From: Lepas anatifera
Lineage: Eukaryota; Arthropoda; Thecostraca; Lepadidae
Length of the DNA: 64,000 nucleotides
Assembly: GCA_034440635.1 (NCBI GenBank)
Contig: JAOTON010000972.1
Coordinates: 1 to 64,000 of the forward strand
Direction: 5' to 3'
Of the stretch, positions 6,011 through 42,480 are shown in pieces. How positions within the stretch are numbered: the stretch's first letter is position 1; the number at the start of each line of letters is the position of its first letter. The notes beneath the pieces are model-generated. The model did not search any database, was not told the origin of the DNA, and saw nothing but the letters and a program-made list of their open reading frames with translations. A program made the position numbers and the translations under genes.

Positions 6011-6690
6011 GGAGGGCGGGAGGGCTAATCTAGAGATCCGACAATTAGTCTCACGAGGTCTCCAGGAGTTAGACTCAGGTGTCCCCTGAAGACGGGGACC
6101 ATGAGACCAAGCTCGGGGGCCCCTGAGACCAAGATCGAAAGGCCCGTGAGACTAAGCTCGGGGCCTCCTGAGACCAAACTAAGGGAGCTCCCCCGAGATA
6201 AATTTTCGGTACTCTGGAGCTCCGATACCGGTGATCGGGGGCCCCTGAGACCAAGTTCGAGGGGCCCCTGAGACCAGGTTCGGAGGTCCCTCGAGACCAA
6301 GCTCGGGGGCCCCTGAGACCAAGCTCGGGAGCCCCCTGAGACCGAGCTCGGGGACCCCTGAGACCAAGCTCAGGGGGCCGTGAGACCAAGCTCGGGGGCC
6401 TCCTGAGACTAAGCTCGGAGGCCCCTGAGACCAAGTTCGGAGATCCCTTGAGACCAAGCTCGGGGCCCCTGAGACAAAGCTCGGGGGTCCCCTGAGACGT
6501 AGCTCAATGGGCCCACCAAATTCAATGTTCGGTACTCTGGAGCACTCGATATCGATGATTGGGGGCCCCCTGAGACCAAGCTCGGAAAACCCGTGAGACC
6601 AAGCTCGGGGGCCCCTGAGACCGAGTTCGGAGGTCCCATGAGACGAAGCTCGGGGGCCCCTGATACCAATTCCGGAGGTCCCTTGAGAAA
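6011..6690 (-). repeat. GGTCTC minisatellite, inverted block
   Basis: The same unit in reverse orientation (gaccaagctcgggggcccctga). The orientation flips near 6010-6110, so this is the inner mirror of the fold-back element. It ends in gtcccttgagaaac, the counterpart of gtttctcaagagac at 3631. Confidence 0.85.
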
Positions 6691-9600
6691 CTTTATAAAG
6701 TTGTTGTTAATGGAAGGATTGATATGAAACTCAAGAAACCCCTTAGTTAGATTTTTTGACATTTTTTAGTGAAAACCGTAAGTCTCTAGCTGCTATGGTT
6801 GCGGAGCATGGGCTTTTCCGCAGGCCAAAAATTAGCGTTTTACGTTATAACGTTGTTATTTACCGTGGGATCAATATGAAACTCAAGAATACCACGTTTT
6901 GGACCACGTTGATTCTATTAGTGAAAACGGCGAGTCGCTAGATACTAGAGTTGCGGAGCATTGGCTTTTCCGCAGGCCAAAAAGTAACGTTTTACGTTAT
7001 AACGTTGTTGTTAATGGAAGGACTGATATGAAACTCAAGAAACCCATTAGTTAGATTTTTTGACATTTTTTAGTGAAAACCGTAAGTCTCTAGCTGCTAT
7101 GGGTGCGGAGCATGGGCTTTTCCGCAGGCCAAAAATTAACGTTTTACGTTATAACGTTGTTATTTACCGTGGGATCAACATGAAACTCAAGAATACCACG
7201 TTTTGGACCACGTTGATTCTATTAGTGAAAACGGCGAGTCGCTAGATACTATGGTTGCGGAGCATGGGCTTTTCCGCAGGCCAAAAAGTAACGTTTAACG
7301 TTATAACGTTTTTTGTTAAAGGAAGGATTGATATGAAACTCAAGAAACCCTTTAGTTAGATATTTTGACATTTTGTAGTGAAAACCGTAAGTCTCTAGCT
7401 GCTATGGTTGCGGAGCATGGGCTTTTCCGCAGGCCAAAAATTAACGTTTTGCGTTATAACGTTGTTTTTTTACCGTTGGATCAATATGAAACTCAAGAAT
7501 ACCACGTTTTGGACTACTTTGATTCTATTAGTGAAAACGGCGAGTCGCTAGATACTAGGGTTGCGGAGCATGGGCTTTTCCGCAGGCCAAAAAGTAACGT
7601 TTAACGTTATAACGTTGTTGATAATGGAAGGATTGATATGAAACTCAAGAAACCCCTTAGTTGGATTTTTTGACATTTTTTAGTGAAAACCGTAAGTCTC
7701 TAGCTGCTATGGGTGCGGAGCATGGGCTTTTCCGCAGGCCAAAAATTAACGTTTGACGTTATAACGTTGTTATTTACGGCAGGATCAACATGAAACTCAA
7801 GAATACCTCGTTTTGGACCACGCTGATTCTATTAGTGAAAACGGCGAGTCGCCAGCTACTATGGTTGCGGAGCATGGGCTTTTCCGCAGGGCAAAAAGTA
7901 ACGTTTTACGTTATAACGTTGTTATTTACGGCAGGATCAACATGAAACTCAAGAATACCACGTTTTAGACCACGCTGATTCTATTAGTGAAAACGTCGAG
8001 TCGCCAGCTACTATGGTTGCGGAGCATGGGCTTTTCCGCAGGCCAAAAAGTAACGTTTAACGTTATAACGTTGTTGTTAATGGAAGGATTGATATGAAAC
8101 TAAAAAAACCCTTAGTTATATTTTTGACATTTTTTAGTGAAAACCGTAAGTCTCTAGCTGCTATGGGTGCGGAGCATGGGCTTTTCCGCAGGCCAAAAAT
8201 TAACGTTTTGCGTTATAACGTTGTTTTTTTACCGTGGGATCAATATGAAACTCAAGAATACCACGTTTTGGACTACTTTGATTCTATTAGTGAAAACGGC
8301 GAGTCGCTAGATACTAGGGTTGCGGAGCATGGGCTTTTCCGCAGGCCAAAAAGTAACGTTTAACGTTATAACGTTGTTGATAATGGAAGGATTGATATGA
8401 AACTCAAGAAACCCCTTAGTTGGATTTTTTGACATTTTTTAGTGAAAACCGTAAGTCTCTAGCTGCTATGGGTGCGGAGCATGGGCTTTTCCGCAGGCCA
8501 AAAATTAACGTTTTACGTTATAACGTTGTTATTTACGGCAGGATCAACATGAAACTCAAGAATACCTCGTTTTGGACCACGCTGATTCTATTAGTGAAAA
8601 CGGCGAGTCGCCAGCTACTATGGTTGCGGAGCATGGGCTTTTCCGCAGGGCAAAAGTAACGTTTTACGTTATAACGTTGTTATTTACGGCAGGATCAACA
8701 TGAAACTCAAGAATACCACGTTTTGGACCACGCTGATTCTATTAGTGAAAACGTCGAGTCGCCAGCTACTATGGTTGCGGAGCATGGGCTTTTCCGCAGG
8801 CCAAAAAGTAACGTTTAACGTTATAACGTTGTTGTTAATGGAAGGATTGATATGAAACTAAAAAAACCCCTTAGTTATATTTTTTGACATTTTTTAGTGA
8901 AAACCGTAAGTCTCTAGCTGCTATGGGTGCGGAGCATGGGCTTTTCCGCAGGCCAAAAATTAACGTTTTCCGTTATAACGTTGTTATTTACCGTGGGATC
9001 AATATGAAACTCAAGAATACCACGTTTTGGACCACGTTGATTCTATTAGTGAAAACGGCGAGTCGCTAGATACTAGGGTTGCGGAGCATGGGCTTTTCCG
9101 CAGGCCAAAAAGTAACGTTTTACGTTATAACGTTGTTGTTAATGGAAGGACTGATATGAAACTCAAGAAACCCCTTAGTTAGATTTTTTGACATTTTTAG
9201 TGAAAACCGTAAGTCGCCAGCTACTATGGTTGCGGAGCATGGGCTTTTCCGCAGGCCAAAAATTAACGTTTTACGTTATAACGTTGTTATTTACCGTGGG
9301 ATCAACATGAAACTCAAAAATACCACGTTTTTGACCACGTTGATTCTATTAGTGAAAACGGCGAGTCGCTAGATACTAGGGTTGCGGAGCATGGGCTTTT
9401 CCGCAGGCCAAAAAGTAACGTTTAACGTTATAACGTTTTTTGTTAATGGAAGCTGATATGAAACTCAAGAAACCCTTTAGTTAGATACTTTGAAATTTTG
9501 TAGTCAAAACTGTAAGTCTCTAGCTGCTATGGGTGCGGAGCATGGGCTTTTCCGCAGGCCAAAAATTAACGTTTTACGTTATAACGTTGTTATTTACCGT

Positions 9601-10496
9601 GGGATCAACATGAAACTCAAGAATACCACGTTTTGGACCACGTTGATTCTATTAGTGAAAACGGCGAGTCGCTAGATACTAGGGTTGCGGAGCATGGGCT
9701 TTTCCGCAGGGCCAAAAAGTAACGTTTTACGTTATAACGTTGTTGTTAATGGAAGGACTGATATGAAACTCAGGAAACCCCTTAGTTAGATTTTTTGACA
9801 TTTTTTAGTGAAAACCGTAAGTCGCCAGCTACTATGGTTGCGGAGCATGGGCTTTTCCGCAGGGCAAAAAGTAACGTTTTACGTTATAACGTTGTTATTT
9901 ACGGCAGGATCAACATGAAACTCAAGAATACCACGTTTTGGACCACGCTGATTCTATTAGTGAAATCGGCGAGTCGCCAGCTACCATGGTTGCGGAGCAT
10001 GGGCTTTTCCGCAGGGCAAAAAGTAACGTTTTACGTTATAACGTTGTTATTTACCGCGGGATCAACATGAAACTCAAGAATACCACGTTTTGGACCACGC
10101 TGATTCTATTAGTGAAAACGGCGAGTCGCCAGCTACTATGGTTGCGGAGCATGGGCTTTTCCGCAGGGCCAAAAGTAACGTTTTACGTTATAACGTTGTT
10201 ATTTACCGCGGGATCAACATGAAACTCAAGAATACCACGTTTTGGACCACGCTGATTCTATTAGTGAAAACGGCGAGTCGCCAGCTACTATGGTTGCGGA
10301 GCATGGGCTTTTCCGCAGGCCAACAAGTAACGTTTTACGTTATAACGTTGTTGTTAATGGAAGGATTGATATGAAACTCAAAAAACCTCTTAGTTAGATT
10401 TTTTGAAATTTTTTGGTGAAAACTGTAAGTCTCTAGCTGCTATGGTTACGGAGTATGGGCTTTTCCGCAGGTCTTTTCCGCCGTTAAGTCCCTCCC
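6691..10496 (-). repeat. Right arm: tandem 152-bp units, inverted
   Basis: About 25 inverted copies of the left-arm unit, nearly twice the left arm. A block at about 7620-8090 recurs at about 8380-8840 as a larger duplication, so the array has grown by segmental as well as single-unit duplication. Confidence 0.9.
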
Positions 10497-13370: not shown

Positions 13371-13660
13371 GGTTAGGTTAGGTGTTAGGTTAGGTTAGGT
13401 TAGGTTAGGTTAGGTTAGGTTAGGTTAGGTTAGGTTAGGTTAGGTTAGGTTAGGTTAGGTTAGGTTAGGTTAGGTTAGGTTAGGTTAGGTTAGGTTAGGT
13501 TAGGTTAGGTTAGGTTAGGTTAGGTTAGGTTAGGTTAGGTTAGGTTAGGTTAGGTTAGGTTAGGTTAGGTTAGGTTAGGTTAGGTTAGGTTAGGTCAGGT
13601 CAGGTCAGGTCAGGTCAGGTCAGGTCAGGTCAGGTCAGGTCAGGTCAGGTCAGGTCAGGT
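13371..13660 (+). repeat. (TTAGG)n array passing into (TCAGG)n
   Basis: About 42 near-perfect TTAGG units, then about 13 TCAGG units from about 13594 to 13660. TTAGG is the standard arthropod telomere unit. Here it is internal to a hairpin element, with a short CCTAA tract in the opposite arm. Confidence 0.95.
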
Positions 13661-13921: not shown

Positions 13922-13967
13922 CACCTGACCTGACCTAACCTAACCTAACCTAACCTAACCTAACCCT
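13922..13967 (-). repeat. Short (CCTAA)n array, mirror of the TTAGG array
   Basis: About seven CCTAA units after two CCTGA units, in the inverted arm of the same hairpin. The order TCAGG/TTAGG is preserved in mirror image but far shorter than on the left. Confidence 0.9.
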
Positions 13968-23008: not shown

Positions 23009-23039
23009 ATGACTGAGTATAAACTAGTGGTGGTTGGAG
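23009..23039 (+). CDS. Ras: Ras coding exon 1
   Basis: Encodes [10 protein letters not shown] plus the first base of codon 11. The context gctaaaATGA precedes the start, and the donor is ggag/gtgagt. The intron (1,914 bp, phase 1) splits the P-loop between Gly10 and Ala11. Confidence 0.95.
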
Positions 23040-25114
23040 GTGAGTCTTGCTTCTTGTTTTTTCTGAATAGTTTTCCTGGAGATTTGAAACCAATGGAGCT
23101 ATGCTGGTGAGTCATTTCCTTGCGTCCATTTTCTTAAATCTCAATTACAATGTATAAAGTCCTTTTTAGCAAAGGTGTCAGCCGTATCTCACAGCCAGGT
23201 CCCGGTGGCAAGGGGTAGCTGGGGGGCAAGGGGGCAGCTGCGTCTGGGGGGGCAAAAAAGGACACCCACGCACACACGCACACGCACGCACGCACGCACG
23301 CACGCATAGTTGAATCGAGACGGGGAACTACCTTTGGTCATTAACGGAGAGGCCTTTTACTTTTGTTTACCGTGCCTTAAGTTGTTAAAGCCAGGAATTC
23401 CATATGCGATGGTATTTGAAGACTTTACAGGTTCTTCTCGAAAAATTCCACCATGAAAAAGTCCGTTTGTATACGCTCAAGGTATTCCTTGGGAACGACT
23501 TTTGGGGAGTCTGGACCAAGATAAATGTTCAAAACATCGGAAGGTTCCCTTAAAAAAGCTTAATTAAGGCAACATGCTCCTAGCTTGTTCAATTTACTAG
23601 TTACTGTTTAGCTACTGTTTTGTTAGTGAAACGCGAAATTTTTGCCCAGTCCTGGTTACTCCCGTAATTGATAACATTGTCAATGATGCTAAAAATCCTT
23701 TATTGTTTGACTTGTTGTCTTTGCACTTCCATATAATTAAAGCGGAATACACCATCGCATAAGGCTGGAGTGAGAGATGTTGACATTGCACTTTTATCGC
23801 TCATGCAAATGATAGGTGTCCGTCTCAGTATGTTGTGTTGGTTTCCCACTCATCTGAATGGCTGAAAGTCCTAGTAATGTTCAGGACTGAAGATTTATGC
23901 TCGATCCAGGGGGATGCTGGGTGGGTTGACACGAACACCATAATACAATGCACGGAAACACAACTAGAGATTAGAATTATGACGATATCAAAATGGACTA
24001 TCCCACTGAGGATAACGTTTTTGTTTTTGTAGTGGGGAAGTCCGTTTAAATACCGTCATAACTGTAATACAAGCTCGCTAGAAAGCTCGATTTGGGCCTC
24101 TTGGGAGTCCAGCAATTCATTGGATCTTGCCCGCTACCGGACCCCGGAATCTCCGCCCAAGGTCATCTGTCTTTTCGTAGGAGTTTTCTTTATTGATTTC
24201 ACTGCATCAGGCCGCTCAACAACAAAATAGGGCAATTCTTAGCCTGGAACACATGAAGAATCTTTGGCTTGATTGACTGAACATGAATGGTATAGAATCG
24301 TTTTCTGTCGTAATTCTGAACAGCGCCATCCCCCGTAGCCACGCTTGCGCAGAGGTCCGTTCCCTCTTCCTGCTTTTCGGTCCGCTAGGGCAGCTGTTAT
24401 GTGCTCCGGGTCAGCAAGCATGTTCAAGTTAAACCCTTAAACAGACCAAAATCACCAAACGGCTAAGTACAGAAGTAGACATGTAAGTACAGAAGTAGGA
24501 TATAAAACCTGGCAGAATATGTAGCAGATGTTGCACCATCTGGAATTTGCAGTCTTGGAAGATGTTCTGAATTATCACAGGAAGACTTGAAATATGCATC
24601 AGAAGTCGTATGATGTTCATTGGAGCAAGTATTATCGAACTAAGTTTTATTGAAGTTGCAGAATCTCTTGCTTACAGATTCTATGTGGTGAGGTACGTGA
24701 CCGAGGAAGGCGTTGGTATTTTTGTCTATGGTCACGAGGGAAAACCCAGTTCTGTTGAAACAAATCAGGTTTGTGCCCAACATTATTTTGTGTATGTACA
24801 ATACAAATGTCAACCCTGAAATCAAGTTATGATAAAAACACTGGCGTATCTGGTACTTTTCTTCATGTAACATTGGGCTGCGCGATGCGCAGCACAAGAG
24901 CTGCATAAAAGAAATAGCCACCTTGTATGTGACATTTATTTTCTTGTTTGCAGCTGGAGGCGTAGGTAAGAGCGCTCTTACCATTCAACTGATTCAAAAC
25001 CAGTGAGTATCAATGTGTTAATCAATGTCCATTTGATAGCATGTTGTGTTATTAAGCGTGTACATGTAGTCGTGAACGCCGGAACACAATATGCTTTAAA
25101 ATGAAAATGAGGTG

Positions 25115-25163
<49 letters not shown>

Positions 25164-28100
25164 GCACAATGGCTGCGTGCTGAGTAACTGATGCTGCCAG
25201 AAGGCAGCCCGAGTCACCGGATCCCTCCGTAGTTTTCACTTGGCTTCGGCCCCGGTGAATACGAGAAATACTGCACCATCCTATCTGGCTGACAGAAAGA
25301 ACGGAAAAGTGAATACTAGCTCCCGCTGCCAGCTACGCTCTCCCCAGTATTTGTAGCGATGCCTTTGCGCTGAGGTGTTCAATTATTAGTTCTTTTCCTG
25401 CTGAGGAGTGTAAACAGAAACCGTCTCCAATGCTGTTTGCCTTTCAATGAGTTAAAAACAGCGTCAGGGGTTGGGTGGAGGGCTGGGCTGTTCAAATAGC
25501 TGAAACAATTTCCTGAAGTACTGTAGATCATCTTATGCATTCCATGCAGGAGCAGGGACAGCTTGCCTCTGATTGGTCCTGCAATGAGACTTTATTGACA
25601 AAGAAGACAGAGCGCCCTCGTCTGAGCGCAGGGTCATATGAAGTCGAGCACACTTCCAGGGGATGACTGCAAAGAGCTATACACATTTATTGTCGCGTTT
25701 CTGTCTGGATTTCTAGAAATTCCCGAATACTTGGACCAGAAGCAACAGATTGTTAACCGGCGTTCTGTACATCGTGTATTAGCCCGGATGTACGAGCGGT
25801 TCCAGTACGCGTTATCTACGCGGCGACCACGTAAACTGACTGCGAGTCATGTAACCGGGGGCCTGCCTTTGGGGCTCAGCTTATATGAATCGGTTAGTAT
25901 GTTCCTACGGTCGTTGTGTGAATCAAGCGTGCTGAAGCTGCTCGTGCAACGGCGGTAATTGTGGACCTCTTTTCATCCTCAACTCATTTTTCCGGCAGGA
26001 AAAAGACCCCTTGTCATAAGCAAACGGTGAAAATCAAGAAAGCGTGTTTTTATTGTTTTCAGTGTTTATTTTTCAGCCCACACTTGAACCTTCAGCTGCA
26101 TGGGACGGACGAGGATCAAATGCATCTTACTTACGATATCACAATTCGCAGTCTACGTCAGTGTTTCCTTTGTTCAGGGAAAATAAACTAGGAGTAGGCG
26201 TGATACTAGATGTCACCGAAAAACATTTTGCCCACGAAAAACCCACAGCAACCCGAACTACCCGCTGCATTTAAACGGCAGGGTTTCCGGACCCTGGCTT
26301 CCAAGGCTGACGTAACAGTTAGGATCTTATTTCGGAACCACCGTAAATACCCGTACAAATCGCATCGTGTTGTAAAGCAATGCGACCAGTTGCATGCAAT
26401 GTCCGATGGAAATGCCGCCGCCTCCGTGCCCTCCACTTCGTAGCCAGGTCTACCTGGATTAGGTGCCTCTCTACTTGGCCGGGCTAGGCTTCACCATGTT
26501 GCCCTGATACCACGAATCACCTATTCTTGGCCTGCCAACCCGAGGAGCAGATATGCATTGTGGTTTCGGCTGACCGGGAGGCCTATGCCCTCATTGCAGC
26601 TTGCCAGCAGCTAACCGATTGTGTGGCCTCCAGCTTCGTGGACGAGTACGACCCGACGATCGAGGACTCGTACAGGAAGCAGGTGGTGGTGGACGGGGAG
26701 ACGTGTCTGCTGGACATCCTGGACACGGCCGGGCAGGAGGAGTACAGGTGGGCACTCAGCTCAGTCTGCTGGGCATCCTGGACACGGCCGGGCAGGAGGA
26801 GTACAGGTGGGCACTCAGCTCAGTCTGCTGGACATCCTGGACACGGCCGGGCAGGGGGAGTACAGGTGGGCACTCAGCTCAGTCTGCTGGACATCCTGGA
26901 CACGGCCGGGCAGGAGGGAGTACAGGTGGGCACTCAGCTCAGTCTGCTGGACATCCTGGACACGGCCGGGCAGGAGGAGTACAGGTGGGCACTCAGCTCA
27001 GTCTGCTGGACATCCTGGACACGGCCGGGCAGGGGAGTACAGGTGGGCACTCAGCTCAGTCTGCTGGACATCCTGGACACGGCCGGGCAGGAGGAGTACA
27101 GGTGGGCACTCAGCTCAGTCTGCTGGGCATCCTGGACACGGCCGGGCAGGGGGAGTACAGGTGGGCACTCAGCTCAGTCTGCTGGACATCCTGGACACGG
27201 CCGGGCAGGAGGAGTACAGGTGGGCACTCAGCTCAGTCTGCTGGACATCCTGGACACGGCCGGGCAGGGGAGTACAGGTGGGCACTCAGCTCAGTCTGCT
27301 GGACATCCTGGACACGGCCGGGCAGGAGGAGTACAGGTGGGCACTCAGCTCAGTCTGCTGGACATCCTGGACACGGCCGGGCAGGGGAGTACAGGTGGGC
27401 ACTCAGCTCAGTCTGCTGGACATCCTGGACACGGCCGGGCAGGAGGAGTACAGGTGGGCACTCAGCTCAGTCTGCTGGACATCCTGGACACGGCCGGGCA
27501 GGAGGAGTACAGGTGGGCACTCAGCTCAGTCTGCTGGACATCCTGGACACGGCCGGGCAGGGGAGTACAGGTGGGCACTCAGCTCAGTCTGCTGGACATC
27601 CTGGACACGGCCGGGCAGGAGGAGTACAGGTGGGCACTCAGCTCAGTCTGCTGGACATCCTGGACACGGCCGGGCAGGGGAGTACAGGTGGGCACTCAGC
27701 TCAGTCTGCTGGACATCCTGGACACGGTCGGGCAGGAGGAGTACAGGTGGGCACTCAGCTCAGTCTGCTGGACATCCTGGACACGGCCGGGCAGGAGGAG
27801 TACAGGTGGGCACTCAGCTCAGTCTGCTGGACATCCTGGACACGGTCGGGCAGGAGGAGTACAGGTGGGCACTCAGCTCAGTCTGCTGGACATCCTGGAC
27901 ACGGCCGGGCAGGGGAGTACAGGTGGGCACTCAGCTCAGTCTGCTGGACATCCTGGACACGGTCGGGCAGGGGGAGTACAGGTGGGCACTCAGCTCAGTC
28001 TGCTGGACATCCTGGACACGGCCGGGCAGGAGGAGTACAGGTGGGCACTCAGCTCAGTCTGCTGGACATCCTGGACACGGCCGGGCAGGGGGAGTACAGG

Positions 28101-31100
28101 TGGGCACTCAGCTCAGTCTGCTGGACATCCTGGACACGGCCGGGCAGGGGAGTACAGGTGGGCACTCAGCTCAGTCTGCTGGACATCCTGGACACGGCCG
28201 GGCAGGGGAGTACAGGTGGGCACTCAGCTCAGTCTGCTGGACATCCTGGACACGGCCGGGCAGGGGGAGTACAGGTGGGCACTCAGCTCAGTCTGCTGGA
28301 CATCCTGGACACGGCCGGGCAGGGGGAGTACAGGTGGGCACTCAGCTCAGTCTGCTGGACATCCTGGACACGGCCGGGCAGGGGGAGTACAGGTGGGCAC
28401 TCAGCTCAGTCTGCTGGACATCCTGGACACGGCCGGGCAGGGGGAGTACAGGTGGGCACTCAGCTCAGTCTGCTGGACATCCTGGACACGGCCGGGCAGG
28501 GGAGTACAGGTGGGCACTCAGCTCAGTCTGCTGGACATCCTGGACACGGCCGGGCAGGGGAGTACAGGTGGGCACTCAGCTCAGTCTGCTGGACATCCTG
28601 GACACGGCCGGGCAGGGGGGAGTACAGGTGGGCACTCAGCTCAGTCTGCTGGGCATCCTGGACACGGCCGGGCAGGGGGAGTACAGGTGGGCACTCCGCT
28701 CAGTCTGCTGGACATCCTGGACACGGCCGGGCAGGGGGAGTACAGGTGGGCACTCAGCTCAGTCTGCTGGGCATCCTGGACACGGCCGGGCAGGGGGAGT
28801 ACAGGTGGGCACTCCGCTCAGTCTGCTGGACATCCTGGACACGGCCGGGCAGGGGGAGTACAGGTGGGCACTCAGCTCAGTCTGCTGGGCATCCTGGACA
28901 CGGCCGGGCAGGGGGAGTACAGGTGGGCACTCAGCTCAGTCTGCTGGGCATCCTGGACACGGCCGGGCAGGGGAGTACAGGTGGGCACTCAGTTCAGTCT
29001 GCTGGACATCCTGGACACGGCCGGGCAGGGGGAGTACAGGTGGGCACTCAGCTCAGTCTGCTGGGCATCCTGGACACGGCCGGGCAGGGGGAGTACAGGT
29101 GGGCACTCAGCTCAGTCTGCTGGGCATCCTGGACACGGCCGGGCAGGGGGAGTACAGGTGGGCACTCAGCTCAGTCTGCTGGACATCCTGGACACGGCCG
29201 GGCAGGGGGAGTACAGGTGGGCACTCAGCCAACCGCCTGCTCAGTGCCGATCTACAATAATATCGCCTCAAAAATCTCGTCTGCGCTACAGCCGATCAAC
29301 CATCTGTTTAGGCACTTCATAATCAGATGAACGAGTGTGCCTTTAAGAGTTGTGCGTGGGAGTGGGGATGAAATGTGTTCGGCTATTGGATGTGGATAGA
29401 AAGGAATCAGTTTTCCGTGTAGCTCGAATTATCCGATCACTTCTTATCATCGGCCCAAACACCTATGGTATGGTTGTTAGCGAGTATATTGGTCTTACCC
29501 ATTTCTTCTTTTGTGTTACCATACCAGGGGTGATTTGGAAGTGGCCTTGCGTTAGTGTTGTGTCGGACTGGCGTGGTGGCTGCTGCCTCCAGTGCGTTAG
29601 TGTTGTGGCTGACCAGCATGGTGGCTACTGCCTCCAGTGCAATGCGCGACCAGTACATGCGGACCGGGGAGGGCTTCCTGCTGGTCTTCGCCGTCAACAA
29701 CGCCAAGTCTTTCGAGGACATGAACAGCTACCGCGAGCAAATCAAACGGGTGAAGGACGCTGATACCGTGCCCATGATACGTGAGTCGTGTGGTTTACTT
29801 CACGCGGCGGTCAGTATGGTCTTTACCAGGAGGTATATTCCGCGGCAGACTGACAGGCGGTTAGCGCCGACTCCCCTCAGCTTTGCCTCCAGACTGGTAC
29901 ATGGGGATATCAGATGCTCTGAATTCGCCTTTCTCGTGCGGTTCGATCTGATTAACGGCTTTTTTAGTTATGGCCTGCAACATTTTCCGGAAAGTCGCAG
30001 TGCAATGATACTTTTTAACCCTCTTAAACACCATGAAGAAAAAAACAATGCAAAAATATGTCTTGTTAGAATCCTCAATGTATCACCATCATGATCCAGA
30101 AGTTAACTAGAGAATTCTAAAATTTGGATTTTTACTTTTTATGAATAAATTCATTTAGTATTTAGCATTGAAAACTATACATTGGACCGGTGAATTTCGA
30201 GTACCTGATAACCTCGTGCCAATTTACAAGAAAATCTGAGGGTGGGGGATCGGTGTTATTTTGCAGCTTCCACCTGTTGGTTTGTCGTGGAGTATTGCAG
30301 GAGTAAATGAAAACTATATTTTTATATCATTGATGACACAGAATCACGACGTAGTTGAAATCACTCCGTTGTGAGCTCGGCTGTAGGTGCTGTAGATGTT
30401 GTGTAGAGCTCGGCTGTAGGTGCTACGGTGGGTTTACTTTAGCTCAGTGTAGATGTGTGTATTGTTGGGCAGACGTTTGGTTGATTCCGTCTCACACCTT
30501 ACTATTATTAACTAAACATATCCATTGGCATGATTGTGGTGATGTATGGACTCAGTGTGACTGTAGATGACCAGCGCCGTGTGGCTAATATCTCGCGTCT
30601 GCAGTGGTGGGGAACAAGTGCGACCTGGCCACCCGCGCTGTCGACATGACCGAGGCCAGGGAGGTGGCCAAACACTACGGCATCCCCTTCGTCGAGACAT
30701 CCGCCAAGACGCGGATGGGAGTGGACGACGCCTTCTACACGCTGGTCCGCGAGATCAAGCGGGACGTAAGTGTGTGTCCGTCTTACTGCGGTCTAGATGT
30801 TCGATTCCCGCATACAGGTGGTAAATCAAGCTGAACGGCCGTCCCGTACTATAAAAAACACTGGAAACACATACCAGTGTTATGCGAGTGTTTTATCTGT
30901 TTTTGCTTGATTTTAGTATATTTTCGTGTGGTAATCCATTCACTCGAAGTGCCTGGGCCAGTTTGATTTGCTCCTCAGTACTCAGTAGCTCAAACGGTTA
31001 AGTTGCAAGCAATTGTGAGGCTTTAGGCTGCACCGATTGCTGAGGTGATATGGCATCGCCAGCTCTCAGTTCGCTGGCGAGGGTACGAGGGGAATCGGAG

Positions 31101-33250
31101 GGACTGTGCAGACCACCCGCCCCGGGATATGAACCCAGGTCATCGGCGTGGAAGTTGAATGCGCTAACACTGTCCCACTGCATCCCAAACGGCTTAAGTG
31201 TATTATATCTGAAATAATAGGACTGGCGGTCGGGGTGCGTGGTGCTATAACCTCTGTTCGAGTGGGTTGGTACTACTGCGTGCGAATCTCGCGACGGCTT
31301 TGTCGGGTGCTTCAAATCTGTTGTCATGGGTGTATTGTTTCTGAATGGACCGCGGAGGCTGCAGAGCGGCTGCTGGACACCGTTCACCACCACCAGGGTC
31401 ACAGGTGCCTTTTGCACGTCACCCATCTGCAGCCGTCTGCTGGCCGTAACTGCGACATCCCTGCCTCCATCGACGACGATGCCTGATCCCTATCGACGAC
31501 GAAACACGCTCTAAAGACGGAACAGTTCTTCTGCCGCACAGTCCGTCGTTACACTGCTGTTAGGGGAGTGTTCGAGCGCCCGGTTGAGGGTACCTAGCGC
31601 TGTTGGAAATTTCATCCGACGGCCGTCGCATCCACCTGCAATGGGTGCCGTCTCACTGCGACATCCGAGGTAACGAGAGAGCCGACCAGCTCGCCAAGGA
31701 GGCCTCTCTACTCCCACAAGAGCACGTCCCGATCGATACGAGGACGGAGCAGCGGCGAGAGCGGCCCGTTCCCGGGTCGCCCGTGACTGCCCCCCCCAGG
31801 CTGGTACCGCCAGCTGATAGGCGAGCGGGTCCCGCCGCCCTTGACCCACGTCGAGAGGGGGACGGCTGTCGAGGTCCATCAACTCCGAGCCGGCCACTGG
31901 TCCGGCTCGGCAGCCTACCTCCACAGGATAGGGGGCAACCCCTCCCGGCAGTGCGCCCAGTGCGGCGACGTTCGCTGCCGGGCCAGCTGGTGCCGACTCT
32001 GTCGGGAGGAGCCGGATACCCCCGGCTCACATCCTGGGGAGGTGTCCGGCCCTGATGGCCACGCGCCATCGCCTCACCGGAACCATCTACCCGAGTCTGG
32101 AGGAGATGCGTGGCGACGACTACGTGGCGGCCGTGGCGAGGGCTGCCAGGTCCCTCCAGAGCCGTGCGGCTACACCTCCGTAAGGAGGCTGGAGGGGAAC
32201 TACTACTACTACTACAGGGTACCTAGCACCAGTGGAGTGTCCCGGACCCAGGGTGCGTGGGAGCCGGAATGACGCTGATGGCGCACATTTACGCCACTAT
32301 AGTTTCTTTTTTGGTAGCGAGACACTGGGGTCTATTGTAATATTTACAGCTGGCACCTTTTGGGTCGTCTAATTTATGTATATATCCAACCACTATTGTA
32401 TAATTAGCGAAATTGTACGTACTAAATCTATTGTACACATCTGGCCTTTGAGTAAAGCACTGAACACGGCAGAATTAGAAATAGCCGCGATGTTCGCCGG
32501 CCCTTCACCCAGTTTTACACACAATCTCTCTTTGGAAGCTATACGATCATTAAAACAATACGTTTCGTCCATAAGAGGCATCGTCGCAACCAGACATTTC
32601 ATATCGTGGACACTGCAATACGTTGAAAACTCAGGATTAACCGGAAAATAACTCGGCTTCGTTGTCCAGAAACCTTGCTCAGTGCATCAGCTGTGCACTT
32701 TCTGCTAACGGAACGAGACACCACGAGCCTGATGCTTGTTTCAGTACCTTCGGATATCTCCACCTCATCAGATTCGAAATATTCTACACACCCAAGTCCG
32801 ATGTCTACACTGGAGCTAAATTGTTCTGAAAGAGCATTTGCTCCTCCCAAGCGAAGGAATGAACCTTGTGAAATGTGCCTCACAATGTTTTCGAAACTAT
32901 ACCGCCGTCATGGAGAGGGGTAGGGCCACGTAACATACACACGGCTAAATTAATCCTAGCCGTTGGTCCCTAAAATGTTAGCTCACGAAAGCCAAAATGA
33001 TGCTGCTAGCGCTACCTATACTTGTGGGATACTATTGGAGGATGTTTTCTTCAGTGCTGCATTGATTTGGTTTTTATATTCTCCAGCTATATACCGGCTA
33101 AAAACGTCTATAGACAGCCGGTATACCGTACGCAGTACTTCGCGTTTGGCTGCGTAGTAGTCCCTTATTCTTTCACAGAAGGAGCGGCGGGGCGGCGAGA
33201 AGGGAAAGGACGGCCGCGGCGGCAGCAGGCGGTGGTGCTGCCCTCTCTGA
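23009..33250 (+). CDS. Ras: Ras small GTPase (HRAS/KRAS/NRAS type), six coding exons
   Basis: Membrane-anchored GTP switch coupling receptor tyrosine kinases to Raf/MAPK and PI3K. Join: 23009-23039, 24954-25002, 26634-26747, 29638-29780, 30605-30765, 33179-33250. Every junction is GT-AG and the phases agree. The sum is 570 nt: 189 residues plus TGA, equal to HRAS. Seen in the translation: P-loop GAGGVGKS (10-17) with Gly12 and Gly13, effector YDPTIEDSY (32-40), DTAGQEEY (57-64) with Gln61, NKCD (116-119), ETSAK (143-147), a basic Gly/Arg/Lys tail, and a last-four CCPL with Cys186 at the prenylation position. Intron 3 holds 43 tandem copies of the exon 3 end. Intron 5 holds a retrotransposon and a SINE. 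Exons 1-2 are far lower in GC3 than exons 3-6. The identity is certain; exon 6 is the least constrained assignment. Confidence 0.95.
23040..24953 (+). other. Ras intron 1
   Basis: Contains a (CACG)n tract at about 23262-23306 next to a G-rich stretch at 23210-23255. Otherwise nothing recognised. It ends ttcttgtttgcag. Confidence 0.8.
24954..25002 (+). CDS. Ras: Ras coding exon 2
   Basis: A 49-nt micro-exon encoding Ala11 to Asn26 and the first two bases of His27, including the GGVGKS part of the P-loop. The donor is ca/gtgagt, phase 2. Confidence 0.95.
25003..26633 (+). other. Ras intron 2
   Basis: Has a (TA)n tract at about 25118-25160. A 106-codon open frame at 25638-25958 has no recognised domain and no clear splice context, so I do not call it a gene. 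The intron ends gtgtggcctccag. Confidence 0.75.
26634..26747 (+). CDS. Ras: Ras coding exon 3
   Basis: Encodes the end of His27 to Tyr64 and two bases of Ser65: switch I, effector loop and the G3/switch II start. Donor tacag/gtgggc. Its last 43 bp are unit 1 of the downstream minisatellite. GC at third positions is almost total (37 of 38 codons). Confidence 0.95.
26705..29232 (+). repeat. Exon-intron junction minisatellite, 43 units of 58-60 bp
   Basis: Each unit is the last 43 bp of Ras exon 3 (codons for [13 protein letters not shown] plus two bases) joined to the first 16 bp of intron 3 (gtgggcactcagctca). I counted 43 units: 30 of 59 bp, 11 of 58 bp and 2 of 60 bp. Every unit keeps the same donor, acag/gtgggc. 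No unit contains a stop in any + frame, so three overlapping open frames of about 880-930 codons cross the array; these are artefacts. The true exon ends in unit 1 at 26747. Confidence 0.95.
29233..29547 (+). other. Ras intron 3, distal part
   Basis: Unique sequence between the minisatellite and the duplicated acceptor region. No other feature was recognised. Confidence 0.6.
29548..29637 (+). repeat. Tandem 45-bp duplication of the exon 4 acceptor region
   Basis: Two 45-bp copies (29548-29592 and 29593-29637), each beginning tgcgttagtgttgtg and ending ggct(g/a)ctgcctccag. Each therefore ends in the same 3' splice-site sequence. The second copy ends at the true acceptor of exon 4. Use of the first acceptor would add 45 in-frame nucleotides with no stop. 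Confidence 0.9.
29638..29780 (+). CDS. Ras: Ras coding exon 4
   Basis: Encodes the rest of Ser65 to Ile112 plus one base of Leu113 ([14 protein letters not shown] and onward). The donor is atac/gtgagt, phase 1. Confidence 0.95.
29781..30604 (+). other. Ras intron 4
   Basis: 824 bp. A small direct duplication of gctcggctgtaggtgct lies at about 30375-30425. Otherwise no feature was recognised. It ends gcgtctgcag. Confidence 0.8.
30605..30765 (+). CDS. Ras: Ras coding exon 5
   Basis: Encodes Leu113 to Asp166, including NKCD and ETSAK, the guanine-specificity motifs. The donor is cgggac/gtaagt, phase 0. Vertebrate ras genes place their last coding intron elsewhere, so this junction is lineage-specific. 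Confidence 0.95.
30990..31195 (-). mobile_element. tRNA-derived SINE-like element in Ras intron 5
   Basis: On the - strand, a box A-like word (tgggacagtgttagcgc) is followed about 35 bp later by a strong box B (gggttcatatccc). The layout is that of a pol III promoter. No acceptor stem closes, so it is not a tRNA gene. Ends and target duplication are not defined. Confidence 0.55.
31599..32215 (+). mobile_element. 5'-truncated non-LTR retrotransposon in Ras intron 5
   Basis: Flanked by a perfect 12-bp duplication agggtacctagc at 31587-31598 and 32216-32227. It encodes the C-terminal half of an RNase H domain ([18 protein letters not shown]) and the downstream tail region. A frameshift near 31800 moves the reading to [17 protein letters not shown]. 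The element ends with a (TAC)n tail. Only about 617 bp of the 3' end was inserted. The clade is uncertain; an I/Ingi-type element with RNase H is a guess. Confidence 0.88.
32228..33178 (+). other. Ras intron 5, distal part
   Basis: Two - strand open frames (32883-32599 and 32602-32393) and one + frame (32675-32923) have no recognised domain. I do not call a gene. The intron ends in a good acceptor with a pyrimidine tract, cccttattctttcacag. Confidence 0.55.
33179..33250 (+). CDS. Ras: Ras coding exon 6 (hypervariable tail and CAAX)
   Basis: Encodes 23 residues from Lys167 to Leu189: [12 protein letters not shown], then [11 protein letters not shown] and TGA. The frame is phase 0 with exon 5. 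The total length of 189, the basic tail and Cys186 four residues from the end all support the assignment. The last residue, Leu, would favour geranylgeranylation by the general CAAX rule. Proline at the a2 position is unusual. Confidence 0.82.
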   Translation, partial: KERRGGEKGKDGRGGSRRWCCPL

Positions 33251-33379: not shown

Positions 33380-33935
33380 CGCTGACGAGATCCATCGTCT
33401 GCGCCGACGGGCCCCGTGCTGCCTCGGCCATACACGTGCTGTGCCTGCCTGCGCCGTGCTGCCTCGGCCATACACGAGCTGTGCCTGTCTGCGCCGTGCT
33501 GCCTCGGCCACACACGTGCTGCGGCTGCCTGCGCCGTGCTGCCTCGGCCATACACGTGCTGCGCGTGTCTGCGCCGTGCTGCCTCGGCCATACACGTGCT
33601 GCGCGTGTCTGCGCCTGCCTGCGCCGTGCTGCCTCGGCCATACACGTACTGCGGCTGCCTGCGCCGTGCTGCCTCGGCCATACACGTGCTGCGGCTGCCT
33701 GCGCCGTGCTGCCTCGGCCATACACGTGCTGCGCGTGTCTGCGCCGTGCTGCCTCGGCCATACACGTGCTGCGCGTGTCTGCGCCTGCCTGCGCCGTGCT
33801 GCCTCGGCCATACACGTACTGCGGCTGCCTGCGCCGTGCTGCCTCGGCCACACACGTGCTGTGCCTGCCTGCGCCGACTGGGCACCGCGCTGCCTCGGCC
33901 ATACACGTGCTGCGCCTGCCTGCGCCGCCAGGCTC
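33380..33935. repeat. 40-bp minisatellite just downstream of the Ras stop
   Basis: About 14 units of gcgccgtgctgcctcggcca plus a variable 20-bp half, with a longer duplicated block. It lies about 130 bp after the stop codon, so it may be in the 3' UTR. Open frames on both strands are repeat translations. Confidence 0.85.
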
Positions 33936-34136
33936 CCGGCTGCTGCCGGTGTGGATGCCTGCTGAGACTGTCGCGCCCACACCGGGGAGCTGCACCTGAC
34001 TTATGTTGGTTTGTGTGCCGGCAATTGTGGTACTGGGTGGGCAGACTGGCCGCAGCGGCTGTAGTGGGCGGCCGCCGGCGCTCTGCCGTGGTGCTCGCTG
34101 TGTGGAGCGGGTGTTGTGATGGGCCGTCCGCTGCCT
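33936..34136. other. Spacer between minisatellites
   Basis: GC-rich DNA with no recognised feature. Confidence 0.4.
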
Positions 34137-35130
34137 GCTGACGCCATGTGGCAGGTCCGTGGACGGGAAGCGCTGCCGAGTCTGCTGCCCTGCACGCGTG
34201 TGATCTCCCGCGGTATCCAGGGCGTGCCCTGACGTCATGTGGCAGCTCCGTGGACGGGAAGTGCTGCCGAGTCTGCTGCCCAGCATACTTGTGATCTCCC
34301 GCGGTATCCAGGGCGTGCCCTGACGCCATGTGGCAGCTCCGTGGACGGGAAGCGCTGCCGAGTCTGCTGCCCTGCACGCGTGTGATCTCCCGCGGTATCC
34401 AGGGCGTGCCCTGACGTCATGTGGCAGCTCCGTGGACGGGAAGTGCTGCCGAGTCTGCTGCCCAGCATACGTGTGATCTCCCGCGGTATCCAGGGCGTGC
34501 CCTGACGCCATGTGGCAGCTCCGTGGACGGGAAGTGCTGCCGAGTCTGCTGCCCTGCACGCGTGTGATCTCCCGCGGTATCCAGGGCGTGCCCTGACGCC
34601 ATGTGGCAGCTCCGTGGACGGGAAGTGCTGCCGAGTCTGCTGTCCTGCATACGTGTGATCTCCCGCGGTATCCAGGGCGTGCCCTGACGCCATGTGGCAG
34701 CTCCGTGGACGGGAAGCGCTGCCGAGTCTGCTGCCCTGCATACGTGTGATCTCCCGCGGTATCCAGGGCGTGCCCTGACGCCATATGGCAGCTCCGTGGA
34801 CGGGAAGCGCTGCCGAGTCTGCTGCCCTGCACATTTGAGGTCTCCCGCGGTATCCGGGGCGTGCCCTGACGCCATGTGGCAGCTCCGTGGACGGGAAGCG
34901 CTGCCGAGTCTGCTGCCCTGCACATTTGAGGTATCCCGCGGTATCCAGGGCGTGCCCTGACGCCATGTGGCAGCTCCGTGGACGGGAAGCGCTGCCGAGT
35001 CTGCTGCCCTGCATACGTGTGATCTCCCGCGGTATCCAGGGCATGCCCTGACGCCATGTGGCAGCTCCGTGGACGAGAAGCGCTGCCGAGTCTGCTGCCC
35101 TGCACACTTGAGGTGTCCCGCGGTATCCCT
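34137..35130. repeat. 91-bp minisatellite, about 11 units
   Basis: Units contain atgtggcagctccgtggacg and gatctcccgcggtatccagg. The period of 91 is not a multiple of three and the - strand is free of stops, so a 671-codon frame (35180-33165) spans this array, the 40-bp array and the antisense of Ras exon 6. I treat that frame as spurious. Confidence 0.9.
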
Positions 35131-35699
35131 GACGCGGTCACGTGGCCTTTGTGTAGACGCGCCGCCAGTTTTGTACTCAATCAATGGGAAGGTGGTTGGC
35201 GGGATAGTAACGTAGTAGTGTTTTACGGTATCACCGGTTGGGTGTGACGGCTACGTGTGTTGTAACGCGCGCTGGTACTAATGGTTTTGAGCCGCGTATG
35301 TGATATATCACTCATTGAATGGTACCTGCTTTTATATAAATGCAGCTTGTTAGCTTCTTGGCACAGGAGAAAGGAGGCAATCATGCACGATCAAATATGA
35401 TATTCTGTATTTTATGAGATGATTAGGATGGTGTGTGCAAAGAATATGGCGGCCTGCTTTTGGTTCAACGTTTCGCTTCAGTGGCCAGTTCACATGTTCA
35501 GCTCCTGCAAGCGCTGTCGATTTTCTAACGCTAACAGTGTGGGCGTGTGCCGACGTCAGAGCTCTCTAAACCGGTCCTGCCTGCCGACACAGTACTGAGG
35601 GTGACGGTGGTCTGTGCGGCTGCCTCTGTTTCAGCGCTGGTAATGGTTTTTTATTGCTTTTGATCGCCGTTTTTACGGGTACTTGCCCGGTTCTGATCG
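35131..35699. other. No gene recognised
   Basis: Unique-looking sequence without splice-supported coding potential. Confidence 0.45.
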
Positions 35700-36530
35700 A
35701 TTCTATGTTTTCGCTGACTGCCGTACGTGATGCTCTGGGTTTCTAACGCGGTGGCTTTGCTGTACGTGATGCTGTGCGTCTCTAATGCTGTAGCTCTGCC
35801 ATAGGTGATGTTCTGGGTTTCAATGCGGTAATTCTGCCGTACGTGATGCGCTGGGTTTCTAATGTGGTGATTTTGCCGTGCGTAACGCTCTGGGTTTCTA
35901 ATGCGGTTGCTCTGTTATGCTCAGGGTTTCTAATGCGCTGGGTTTCTAATGCGGTGGCTTTGCCGCAAGTGATGCTCTGGGTTTTTAACGCGATGACTTT
36001 GCCGTAAGTGATGCTCTGGGTTTCTAATGCGATGGCTATGCCGTAAGTGATGCTCTGGGTTTCTAACGCGATGACTTTGCCGTAAGTGATGCTCTAGGTT
36101 TCTAATGCGGTGGCTATGCCGTAAGTGCTGCCCTGGGTTTCTAACGCGATGGCTTTGCCGTAAGTGATGCTCTGGGTTTCTAATGCGGTGGCTTTGCCGT
36201 AAGCGATGCTCTGGGTTTCTAATGCGGTGGCTATGCCGTAAGTGCTGCCCTGGGTTTCTAACGCGATGGCTTTGCCGTAAGTGATGCTCTGGGTTTCTAA
36301 TGCGGTGGCTTTGCCGTAAGCGATGCTCTGGGTTTCTAATACGGTGGCTATGCCGTAAGTGATGCTCGGGGTTTCTAATACGGTGGCTATGCCGTAAGTG
36401 ATGCTTTGGGTTTCTAATGCGGTGGCTATGCCGCAAGTGATGCTCTGGGTTTCTAATGCGATGGTTTTGCCGTGCTCTGCTTTTCTAATGTGGTGACGCT
36501 GCCGTACATGATGCCCTGGGTTTCTAGGCT
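35700..36530. repeat. 39-bp minisatellite, about 20 units
   Basis: Units of gtttctaatgcggtggcttt followed by gccgtaagtgatgctctgg. The 39-bp period keeps one - strand frame, so 36436-35930 reads as a 13-residue repeat (RNPEHHLRQSHRI). No start context, splice sites or domain were found. Confidence 0.88.
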
Positions 36531-37280
36531 CTGCCGTATGCGATGCTCTTGGTTTCTAATTCGGTGCTTCTGGCGACTTGTGTCGAAGTGCGGTCGGCTT
36601 GTTGATTTTCGCTTTAAGCAGCGATTGGTACGTGAGGCCCTGGCCCGGTAGGCCCTGGTAGGTATGACCCTGGATAAGCTTGTGCTCAGTTGCGTCCGTC
36701 TGGTACTATGCATGACCGATTTGCAATATTACCATGCTGCCTGCTCACAATCTGATGTCAGGTTTTTCGGGTGCGATTAAGTTCTGATGGACGGTTCCCA
36801 ATAAAAGGGCAATTACACTGTGGTGATGTTTTGGTACGATATGAAGAGCTAGTCTGTCTAAACTTGGCTGTCTATGTTTTCATTTGCTTCATCTCGAAAG
36901 GACAGATTATACACGTGTATTTTCAGGCACTGCATTCACATGAAAGACAACCAAGGGTTGCGGGGTCGGTTGCGTGATCCACCGCTGGCATGGGTGGTAG
37001 CTGAAGTAAGGCATCTGACCAGCCTGTTTGTTCCGACGCTATTTGCCGCCGTGCAGTATTCGCTTCTGCTACTTCGTGTTCGATCTCACAACCGCATTGG
37101 CAGGACTAGGTGGATGGGGGAGAGCGCAGTTCCCTCTGCCAGAAGCGTCCTGGGCGCCACTGCTCCTACTGGGAGCATTGCACATATAACTTCCGCTTTT
37201 GCCGCACATTTTGTGGCATGTAGCACTAGTATAAAAGGCATTTGTTCAATTCAGCCAACTCTGCGCTTCGACAAACATTA
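36531..37280. other. No supportable gene
   Basis: Includes a 135-codon + frame at 36874-37281 that I do not recognise. AATAAA at about 36800 on the + strand is the first clean polyadenylation word I noticed downstream of Ras, but it is far from the stop codon. Confidence 0.4.
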
Positions 37281-40691: not shown

Positions 40692-41502
40692 CTGAAATCA
40701 CACAGACGGTAATTACGACTAGATCCAGCCGTAAGCTGTTGAGTCAGTGATCACTTACGAAGAGAAATTAAACATACATATTTTATATATATATCACCGA
40801 CCGGTGAACTGTTTCCCGTCGTAATTATTTAAGAATACACCAAACAGTTTTGCCTGCACTTCAGCGTAAGTGGATATCAACGGTTACATCCGGCTAACAG
40901 TGAAAATCCTTAAGATCAGAATATCGCAATCACCATTGCAAATACTGTTTCCGCGCAAGCCCATTAACGACCTTGCGTTAGGCAAACATGTGTTGTATAA
41001 TTGGTCACCAGTCATTCAGAGCAAACTCAATGCATCTCAGCCCCTTCACCCGACCTGACCCCGGGGTTATCCCGACCTGACCCCGGGGTTAGCCCGACCC
41101 GACCCCGGGGTTAGCCCGACCCGACCCCGGGGTTAGCCCGACCTGACCCCGGGGTTAGCCCGACCCGACCCCGGGGTTAGCCCGACCCGACCCCGGGGTT
41201 AGCCCGACCCGACCCCGGGGTGAGCCCGACCTGACCCCGGGGTTAGCCCGACCCGACCCCGGGGTGAGCCCGACCTGACCCCAGGGTGAGCCCGACCTGA
41301 CCCCGGGGTGAGCCTACCCCGCCGGCGCCGCACACGTGGAACATCTGACAGCCGGCCTCCACGTCAGCGTAGTAGCCTCCGGCGGTGCGGCCGGCGCAGC
41401 TGAAGCCGGTGTCGGGGAGAGCGTCAGGGCTGTAGTTGGGAGGCGGCCGCTGCGCCGCCGAGGCCGCCACCATCGCCGCCAGGAGCAGCACGGTCGCCAG
41501 CG
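37467..41502 (-). CDS. CPAP1-like chitin-binding (peritrophin-A) protein, partial gene
   Basis: Secreted cuticle or matrix protein expected to bind chitin. Join on the - strand: 41502-41318, 40691-37467; an upstream first exon is missing. The first exon shown starts in phase 1 after ttggttgcag and encodes a hydrophobic signal segment (LATVLLLAAMVAASAA), then one ChtBD2 domain with six cysteines spaced 15, 5, 11, 12 and 7. The phase-0 intron lies between Cys3 and Cys4. The 3225-nt second exon encodes 1,074 residues. After CANWFQVNC the chain is Ser/Thr/Pro/Arg-rich with RGRG words and a late acidic tyrosine-rich cluster (DSDYDYEYYDEDDD). One ChtBD2 near the N terminus plus a long low-complexity tail fits arthropod CPAP1-type proteins. 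Open frames on the opposite strand (37612-38568, 39415-40485) are shadows. Confidence 0.85.
40692..41044 (-). other. CPAP1-like intron between domain halves, unique part
   Basis: AT-rich sequence without further features, next to the 22-bp minisatellite. Confidence 0.6.
41045..41315. repeat. 22-bp minisatellite in the CPAP1-like intron
   Basis: About 12 units of cccgacccgaccccggggttag, some ending gtgag. The array runs up to within a few bases of the splice donor at 41317 (- strand). Confidence 0.92.
41318..41502 (-). CDS. CPAP1-like gene, signal peptide and ChtBD2 first-half exon
   Basis: 185 nt, phase 1 to phase 0. Encodes the signal segment, PPPNYSPDALPDTGFSC, and cysteines 1-3 of the chitin-binding domain. 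The donor is ggcggg/gtaggc. Confidence 0.82.
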
Positions 41503-41509
41503 CTGCAAC

Positions 41510-42480
41510 CAACGGACACCGGTCAGCCACGGTGGCCAAACACGCCAGCCAGGGCGGCCAAAACTTCAGCCACGGTGGCCAAACACGCCAGCCATGGCGA
41601 TCAAACACATCAGCCAGGGCGGCCAAACATCTAGTTAGGGTGACCAAACACCCAGCCAGGGCGGCCAACACGCCAGCCATGGCGGCCAACACGCTAGCCA
41701 GGGCAAACACGCCAGTCAGGGTTGCCAAACACGCCAGCCATGGCGGCCAACACGCTAGCCAGGGGGCCAAACACGCCACCCAGGGCGGCCAAACACGCCA
41801 TCCAGGGCGGCCAACACGCCAGCCATGGCGGCCAACACGCTAGCCAGGGCCAAACACGCCACCCAGGGCGGCCAAACATGCCACCCAGGGCGGCCAACAC
41901 GCCAGCCAGGGCGGCCAACACGCCAGCCATGGCGGCCAACACGCTAGCCAGGGCAAACACGCCAGCCAGGGCGGCCAAACACGCCAGCCATGGCGGCCAA
42001 CACGCTAGCCAGGGCAAACACGCCAGCCAGGGCGGCCAAACACGCCAGCGATGGCGGCCAACACGCCGGCCATGGCGGCCAACACGCTAGCCAGGGAAAA
42101 CACGCCACACAGGGCGGCCAAACACGCCACCCAGGGCGGCCAACACGCCAGCCAGGGCGGCCAACACGCCAGCCATGGCGGCCAACACGCTAGCCAAGGC
42201 AAACACGCCAGCCATGGCGGCCAACACGCTAGCCAGGGCGGTCAAACACGCCAGACAGGGCGGCCAAACACGCCAGCCATGGCGGCCAACACGCCAGCCA
42301 TGGCGGCCAACACGCTAGCCAGGGCAAATACGCCAGCCAGGGCGGCCAAACACGCCACCCAGGGCGGCCAACACGCCAGCCAGGGCGGCCAACACGCTAG
42401 CCAGGGCAAACACGCCAGTCAGGGCGGCCAGGGCGGCCAAACACCCAGTCAGGGCGGCCAACACGCCAGCCAGCCAGGAC
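41510..42480. repeat. 21-22-bp minisatellite upstream of the CPAP1-like exon
   Basis: About 45 units of gccaacacgccagccagggcg with atggcg and gctagcc variants in a repeating higher-order order. It ends about 10 bp from the acceptor of the signal-peptide exon, so it probably fills intron 1. Overlapping 60-180 codon frames on both strands are repeat translations. Confidence 0.92.

What the first reader, a model, noticed from the sequence alone, without database searches (positions are those of the whole stretch)
26705..29232. 43 tandem copies of a Ras exon-intron junction inside Ras intron 3
The amplified unit is the last 43 bp of exon 3 plus the first 16 bp of intron 3. Each copy carries the code for DTAGQEEY (G3/switch II start, including Gln61) and a complete 5' splice site. 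A minisatellite made from the catalytic segment of a Ras gene, next to the genuine exon, is something I have not met. It presents the spliceosome with 43 equivalent donors and must create a selection problem for correct exon 3 definition.
Basis: partly seen in the sequence, partly recalled or inferred. Interest (0 to 1): 0.92.

Follow-up and report, generated by a model that had tools for sequence, protein, structure and literature searches.

The report
Ras splice junction repeated 43 times
In the Ras gene of what is likely a barnacle, the end of one exon and the splice signal after it stand 43 times in a row, and normal Ras protein would form only if the cell uses the first signal or repairs its mistakes; such arrays were described in lancelets, and this one would be a natural test of how cells choose among identical splice sites.

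Summary
The array is real in the sequence: a 59-bp unit (last 43 bp of Ras coding exon 3 plus first 16 bp of intron 3) occurs 43 times at 26705-29229. Copy 1 is the genuine exon end; 42 copies lie in intron 3. All 43 share GAGTACAG|GTGGGCACTC. One claim fails: DTAGQEEY is intact in 11 of 43 copies; the others carry A59V, E62G or frameshifts. The gene looks intact: six coding exons, 189 aa, CAAX end. The source is likely a thoracican barnacle. The last 45 nt of intron 3 are duplicated too, giving a second acceptor. This is the kind called 'mirage' in amphioxus; I found no case in barnacles or in Ras. I infer chance duplication and amplification, tolerated because splicing settles on donor 1. 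The junction lies at codon 64/65, where human in-frame insertions are weakly activating and where two solved Ras structures carry a duplicated [10 protein letters not shown]. No RNA, long reads or genome search were available.

The parts
26705..29229 (+). Junction minisatellite: 43 copies of a 59-bp unit (43 nt of exon 3 end + 16 nt of intron 3 start)
   Evidence: TRF; unit-by-unit decomposition
26634..26747 (+). Ras coding exon 3 (genuine); its last 43 nt, 26705-26747, are array copy 1; codes FVDEYDPT...DTAGQEEY
26748..26760 (+). Donor 1 of intron 3 (GTGGGCACTCAGC), the only one of 43 that directly gives the 189-aa Ras
29217..29229 (+). Donor 43, last copy; the sequence then passes into unique intron (CAACCGCC...)
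29548..29640 (+). 45-bp unit, 2.1 copies: duplicated 3' end of intron 3 with a second acceptor before 29593, 45 nt upstream of the true exon 4 start 29638
23009..23039 (+). Ras coding exon 1 ([10 protein letters not shown])
24954..25002 (+). Ras coding exon 2 (P-loop, [15 protein letters not shown])
29638..29780 (+). Ras coding exon 4 ([13 protein letters not shown]...)
30605..30765 (+). Ras coding exon 5 (VGNKCDL...ETSAK...)
33179..33250 (+). Ras coding exon 6 with CAAX end CCPL and stop

Best explanation
This is a minisatellite of the 'mirage' kind: a 59-bp stretch across the end of Ras exon 3 and the start of intron 3 stands 43 times, likely duplicated once by chance and then amplified by ordinary minisatellite turnover, and likely removed whole with the intron because splicing settles on donor 1. 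Shown: the array; 43 identical donors; an open 189-aa Ras frame that only donor 1 gives directly; decay of the coding part in most copies; like unit classes standing near each other; exon-like copies concentrated on the exon side. Inferred: the first duplication joined a point 43 nt inside the exon to a point about 13-16 nt inside the intron; slippage or unequal exchange did the rest; exon definition (a 114-nt exon against 173 nt or more) picks donor 1. The exon carries GGGCAGGAGG, a match to the human minisatellite core GGGCAGGANG, which may have favoured amplification.
For: 43 of 43 donors identical over 18 nt. Complete gene: six coding exons, GT/AG at all five introns, 189 aa, CCPL; Pfam Ras 5.9e-60. 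14 of 43 donors keep the frame and only donor 1 gives 189 aa. Coding part unconstrained: DTAGQEEY kept in 10 of 42 intronic copies, 13 of 42 shifted by one base. Polarity: GGAGGAG in 11 of units 1-21 against 1 of units 22-42, Fisher P 0.0014. Local clustering: 37 class matches at lags 1-4, shuffle mean 21.8, 2 of 2000 shuffles reach it. Core motif: 14 matches in the window, all in the array, 0.68 expected; core as tabulated in PMC2408603 (passages). In amphioxus, Adh3 data and globin RT-PCR suggest that mirages leave splicing normal (PMC3087553, section 16 read).
Against: No RNA data: use of donor 1 is inferred from the open frame alone. Donor 1 has no advantage in sequence over the other 42. 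The introduction of PMC5585400 reports that SRSF1 favours the intron-proximal of competing donors and hnRNP A1 the intron-distal (passages); the first would favour the far end of the array. The longest repeated string of unit classes is only 4, reached by 89 of 500 shuffles, so large block duplication is not seen. The core match was noticed after the fact. The genome and relatives' DNA could not be searched.
Confidence: 0.72

Rival explanations
1. Self-correcting array: decoy donors are used often, but the leftover would be spliced out in a second step. RNA spliced at any later donor keeps a residue that starts with GT at the exon 3 end and stops with AG at exon 4, so a second splice would restore normal mRNA.
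For: For each of the 42 later donors the residue begins GT and ends AG.
Against: The AG of the units follows a purine-rich stretch: 24% pyrimidine in the 17 nt before TACAG, against 59-76% at the five true acceptors.
Confidence: 0.1
2. Functional array: the copies regulate Ras by giving non-productive RNA through decoy donors, or by adding a 42-nt unit (or the 45-nt acceptor insert) in frame at codon 65, making Ras with a longer switch II.
For: 29 of 42 units have a 42-nt body behind CTCAG that would insert 14 aa in frame; the upstream acceptor would insert 15 aa in frame. Human insertions of 7-10 aa at this place are weakly activating (PMC6547725, abstract and passages).
Against: Unit bodies are decaying: 13 of 42 shifted by one base, 17 of 42 with E62G. 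CTCAG has a weak tract, 47% pyrimidine. None of the 234 proteins held after and 54 matches the three array-peptide patterns tested.
Confidence: 0.06
3. Assembly artefact: the animal has far fewer copies and the assembler multiplied them.
For: No reads could be examined. Within the array the longest exact repeat is 283 nt, so short reads could not have ordered it. PMC3087553 reports one globin mirage wrongly assembled in a genome draft.
Against: 12 unit classes in irregular order with local clustering; a simple multiplied block would be periodic.
Confidence: 0.08
4. Dead or spare gene: another Ras gene does the work and this locus decays freely.
For: The rest of the genome could not be searched for another Ras.
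Against: Complete 189-aa frame, canonical splice sites, CAAX end, and residues conserved against seven other Ras proteins.
Confidence: 0.04

Closest known systems
'Mirage' minisatellites of amphioxus (Adh3, troponin C, globins BflGb6 and BflGb9, PGBD5): PMC3087553 (section 16 read; passages), PMC3902484 (passage)
   Same: Tandem copies span an exon-intron boundary beside the genuine exon and repeat AG/GT signals; both the 5' and 3' ends of introns can be affected, as in this intron 3.
   Different: Likely a barnacle, not a lancelet; in Ras; 43 copies against 6 and 3 in the two BflGb6 haplotypes; donor signal identical in 43 of 43, whereas in the globins many but not all repeats keep it. The Adh3 paper (PMC117041) was not held, so its copy numbers were not compared.
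Variable internal tandem repeats at exon-intron boundaries of human genes in segmental duplications: PMC2812944 (passages)
   Same: Minisatellite expansion at exon-intron boundaries.
   Different: Those average 30-bp units repeated 4 times and in some cases create new introns; no new intron is needed to explain Ras here.
Intron gain by tandem duplication, potato RdRp gene: PMC4974935 (abstract and outline)
   Same: A duplication crossing an intron-exon boundary.
   Different: One duplication that made a new intron there; here 43 copies inside an existing intron.
KRAS and NRAS proteins with switch II duplication (PDB 6pq3, 6wgh) and human KRAS/HRAS in-frame insertions:
   Same: [10 protein letters not shown] duplicated at Tyr64/Ser65: the same protein segment and junction as the coding part of the unit.
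   Different: Duplications inside the protein; here the copies lie in an intron and no duplicated protein has been seen.
HRAS1 minisatellite beside human HRAS (recalled, no call)
   Same: A minisatellite at a Ras gene.
   Different: Recalled as lying downstream of the gene and not made of exon sequence.

Membership tests
Mirage minisatellite (as described in PMC3087553) | Tandem repeat unit spans an exon-intron boundary | tested here: met
   43 nt of exon plus 16 nt of intron in each unit
Mirage minisatellite (as described in PMC3087553) | Array adjoins the genuine exon of an intact gene | tested here: met
   Copy 1 is the exon end; open 189-aa frame
Mirage minisatellite (as described in PMC3087553) | Repeats carry AG/GT splice signals | tested here: met
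   43 of 43 carry GAGTACAG|GTGGGCACTC
Mirage minisatellite (as described in PMC3087553) | Regular splicing is not disturbed | not testable with these tools
   No RNA data
Mirage minisatellite (as described in PMC3087553) | Length instability, including somatic | not testable with these tools
   One sequence only; local clustering of unit classes fits turnover
Mirage minisatellite (as described in PMC3087553) | Reported from cephalochordates (taxon of the known cases, not a defining trait) | tested here: not met
   Nearest proteins are from barnacles
Intron gain by tandem duplication | A new intron at the duplicated site | tested here: not met
   The gene model needs no intron beyond the five found; usage unknown without RNA
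Recursive splice sites (definition recalled: pyrimidine tract, AG, then GT) | AG directly followed by GT | tested here: met
   TACAG|GTGGGC in 43 of 43
Recursive splice sites (definition recalled: pyrimidine tract, AG, then GT) | Pyrimidine tract before the AG | tested here: not met
   24% pyrimidine in the one unit measured, against 59-76% at true acceptors

The most novel reading that the evidence does not exclude
Arrays made of exon-intron junctions are self-healing: because every copy ends AG|GT exactly like the exon, a splice at any of the 43 donors leaves a GT...AG residue that a second splice can remove, so a gene can tolerate large amplification of its own donor; failures would leak Ras with a lengthened switch II.
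Probability: 0.1. Interest if true: 0.85.

Novelty: new member of a known kind. Interest (0 to 1): 0.62.

Why it matters
If the assembly is right, this is the experiment that splicing biologists build by hand: one exon followed by 43 donors of the same sequence, 58-60 nt apart, in a gene where a wrong choice would be costly. Counting which donor is used would test rules of donor choice (exon definition, proximity, order of synthesis) directly. It would also show that junction minisatellites are not confined to lancelets, and it places a possibly unstable array at the protein position where short human Ras insertions alter signalling.

Tried and rejected
Amphioxus as the source: my first guess from the mirage literature, dropped after the protein matches.

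Copies of other Ras exons in their flanking introns: the closest to a signal was exon 6 against its upstream intron (15 of 200 shuffles reach the score); the others were reached by 45 or more of 200, or 483 of 500 for exon 4 against intron 3 without the array. For exon 3 only the intron part 29260-29637, without the array, was used. The neighbouring gene's exon gave 14 of 200 and 4 of 200; I read these as low-complexity likeness, which is a judgement.

The duplicated acceptor as an exon copy: only the intron end and about 3 nt of exon 4 are repeated.

A window-wide habit: 4 of 13 splice sites lie within 50 bp of an array edge (circular-shift P 0.011), but the overlap test gives P 0.48. The 25 arrays used were merged by hand from the 63 TRF rows. 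A hint only.

RNA fold of three units: no better than shuffles, z 0.06. G-quadruplex: no four-run G3 motif with loops up to 12 (256 start points of the looser G2 motif were found and not used). No tRNA and no Rfam family at gathering score in the window.

Array peptide in public proteins: 5665 proteins passed the threshold and 120 were listed; the listed ones with best scores are Ras proteins. Of 234 proteins held, none matched the array-peptide patterns and 14 hold DTAGQ twice; I looked into two of these, P0148 and P0149, and did not follow up the other 12.
Full report
What is there. The window holds an apparently intact Ras gene on the + strand: coding exons 23009-23039, 24954-25002, 26634-26747, 29638-29780, 30605-30765 and 33179-33250, GT and AG at all five introns, 189 aa, C-terminus CCPL. 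Pfam Ras matches at 5.9e-60, and the best solved structure, human KRAS, aligns over residues 1-182. Exon numbers count coding exons; a non-coding first exon was not looked for.

The array. From 26705 to 29229 a 59-bp unit is repeated (42.9 copies, 97% matches). Cut at the donor there are 43 donors and 42 complete intronic units of 58-60 bp in 12 classes. A unit is 16 nt of intron start (GTGGGCACTCAGCTCA) followed by 43 nt of exon end. All 43 donors agree over GAGTACAG|GTGGGCACTC. The pairing energy of the donor with the U1 5' end is -10.8 kcal/mol, tied with exon 1 for the best of the five Ras donors (the others -5.8 to -7.6); about 1.5% of some 1500 sampled GTs in the window do as well. The U1 letters were recalled.

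What the copies have become. The coding part is not maintained. Of 42 intronic copies 10 read DTAGQEEY, 2 DTVGQEEY, 17 GQGEY, and 13 are shifted by one base; 8 of the 42 also read LLGILD. Nine are identical to the exon over all 43 nt. Exon-like copies (GGAGGAG) fill the exon side: 11 of units 1-21 against 1 of units 22-42, Fisher P 0.0014; the split at the middle was my choice. Like classes stand near each other: 37 matches at lags 1-4, shuffle mean 21.8, reached by 2 of 2000 shuffles; long repeated strings of classes are not seen (longest 4, reached by 89 of 500 shuffles). This fits local slippage or unequal exchange, with newer or exon-converted copies near the exon; the direction is inference.

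The other end of the intron. The last 45 nt of intron 3 are duplicated (29548-29640, 2.1 copies), giving a second acceptor before 29593 with the same pyrimidine content (59%) as the true one. Its use would add 15 residues in frame. Exon 4 itself is not copied there.

Which organism. The minus-strand neighbour (exons 41502-41318 and from 40691 down) has 7 relatives; the best three are two Amphibalanus amphitrite proteins and one Pollicipes pollicipes protein, at 48-65% identity. The Ras C-terminus WCCPL resembles WCCLL of Pollicipes (89% identity over 98% of the protein) and WCCVL of an unnamed sequence. Both species are thoracican barnacles. I infer a barnacle that is probably neither species. 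GGTTA arrays (the TTAGG motif) at 13371-13660 fit an arthropod (the telomere motif is recalled).

How it likely works. Only donor 1 directly gives the 189-aa protein. 14 of 43 donors keep the frame; the other 13 of these would give 268-1012 aa, and 29 shift the frame. Since the frame is intact I infer that splicing settles on donor 1, probably because it defines a 114-nt exon while the next would define 173 nt. Against this: the 43 donors do not differ in sequence, and the introduction of PMC5585400 says that SRSF1 favours the intron-proximal of competing donors (passages). An alternative needs no perfect choice: the residue left by each of the 42 later donors starts GT and ends AG at the exon border, so a second splice could restore the mRNA; but the unit's AG has only 24% pyrimidine before it, against 59-76% at the true acceptors.

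Why here. The exon contains GGGCAGGAGG, which matches the human hypervariable minisatellite core GGGCAGGANG as tabulated in PMC2408603 (passages). The window has 14 matches, all in the array; 0.68 are expected and 0 of 100 shuffles reach 14. Since copies of one array are not independent, and the match was noticed after the fact, this is suggestive only.

What is known. Tandem repeats spanning exon-intron boundaries were named 'mirages' in amphioxus Adh3 and described in globins, troponin C and PGBD5 (PMC3087553, section 16 read, and passages; PMC3902484, passage). Section 16 reports that Adh3 data and globin RT-PCR suggest regular splicing, and that somatic instability was found at Adh3; the Adh3 paper itself was not held. 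Human genes in segmental duplications have boundary repeats that can form new introns (PMC2812944, passages), and a potato gene gained an intron from a boundary duplication (PMC4974935, abstract). The searches listed no case in a barnacle or in Ras, in a library that lacks most subscription papers.

What is at stake. The junction lies between Tyr64 and Ser65. Human in-frame insertions of 7-10 residues around position 65 are called weakly activating (PMC6547725, abstract and passages), and the solved structures 6pq3 (KRAS) and 6wgh (NRAS) carry [10 protein letters not shown] duplicated exactly there (P0148 and P0149 show the same). A unit taken in as a 42-nt microexon (29 of 42 units have that length) would make such a protein; nothing here shows that it does.

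A window-wide habit? 4 of 13 splice sites lie within 50 bp of an array edge (P 0.011 by circular shift), two of them at one exon of the neighbouring gene, but the looser overlap test is not significant (P 0.48). Only the Ras array holds a clear stretch of exon. It is a hint.

Limits. Copy number in the animal, donor use and the presence of another Ras gene are therefore open.

Noticed in passing
41049-41314 and 41524-42473 (around exon 41502-41318 of the minus-strand gene): Two more minisatellites (22-bp and 21-bp units) sit at both ends of one exon of a gene related to barnacle chitin-binding/mucin-like proteins: one starts about 4 nt past the exon end, the other stops 22 nt before the exon start.
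   Followed up: partly
1733-10471: Two long arrays of a 152-bp unit in opposite orientation, with inverted arms up to 642 nt at 94% and 547 nt at 100% complementarity.
   Followed up: no
13371-13660 and 13923-13965: Interstitial arrays of the TTAGG-type motif (GGTTA x57.6, ACCTA x8.6).
   Followed up: no
31588-32055 (+), in Ras intron 5: RNase H likeness (PF00075, 3.9e-05, 24.3 bits, below Pfam's cut-off 25.8), likely a retroelement remnant.
   Followed up: no
33414-36566: Three further minisatellites (about 40-, 91- and 39-bp units) lie just downstream of the Ras stop codon.
   Followed up: no
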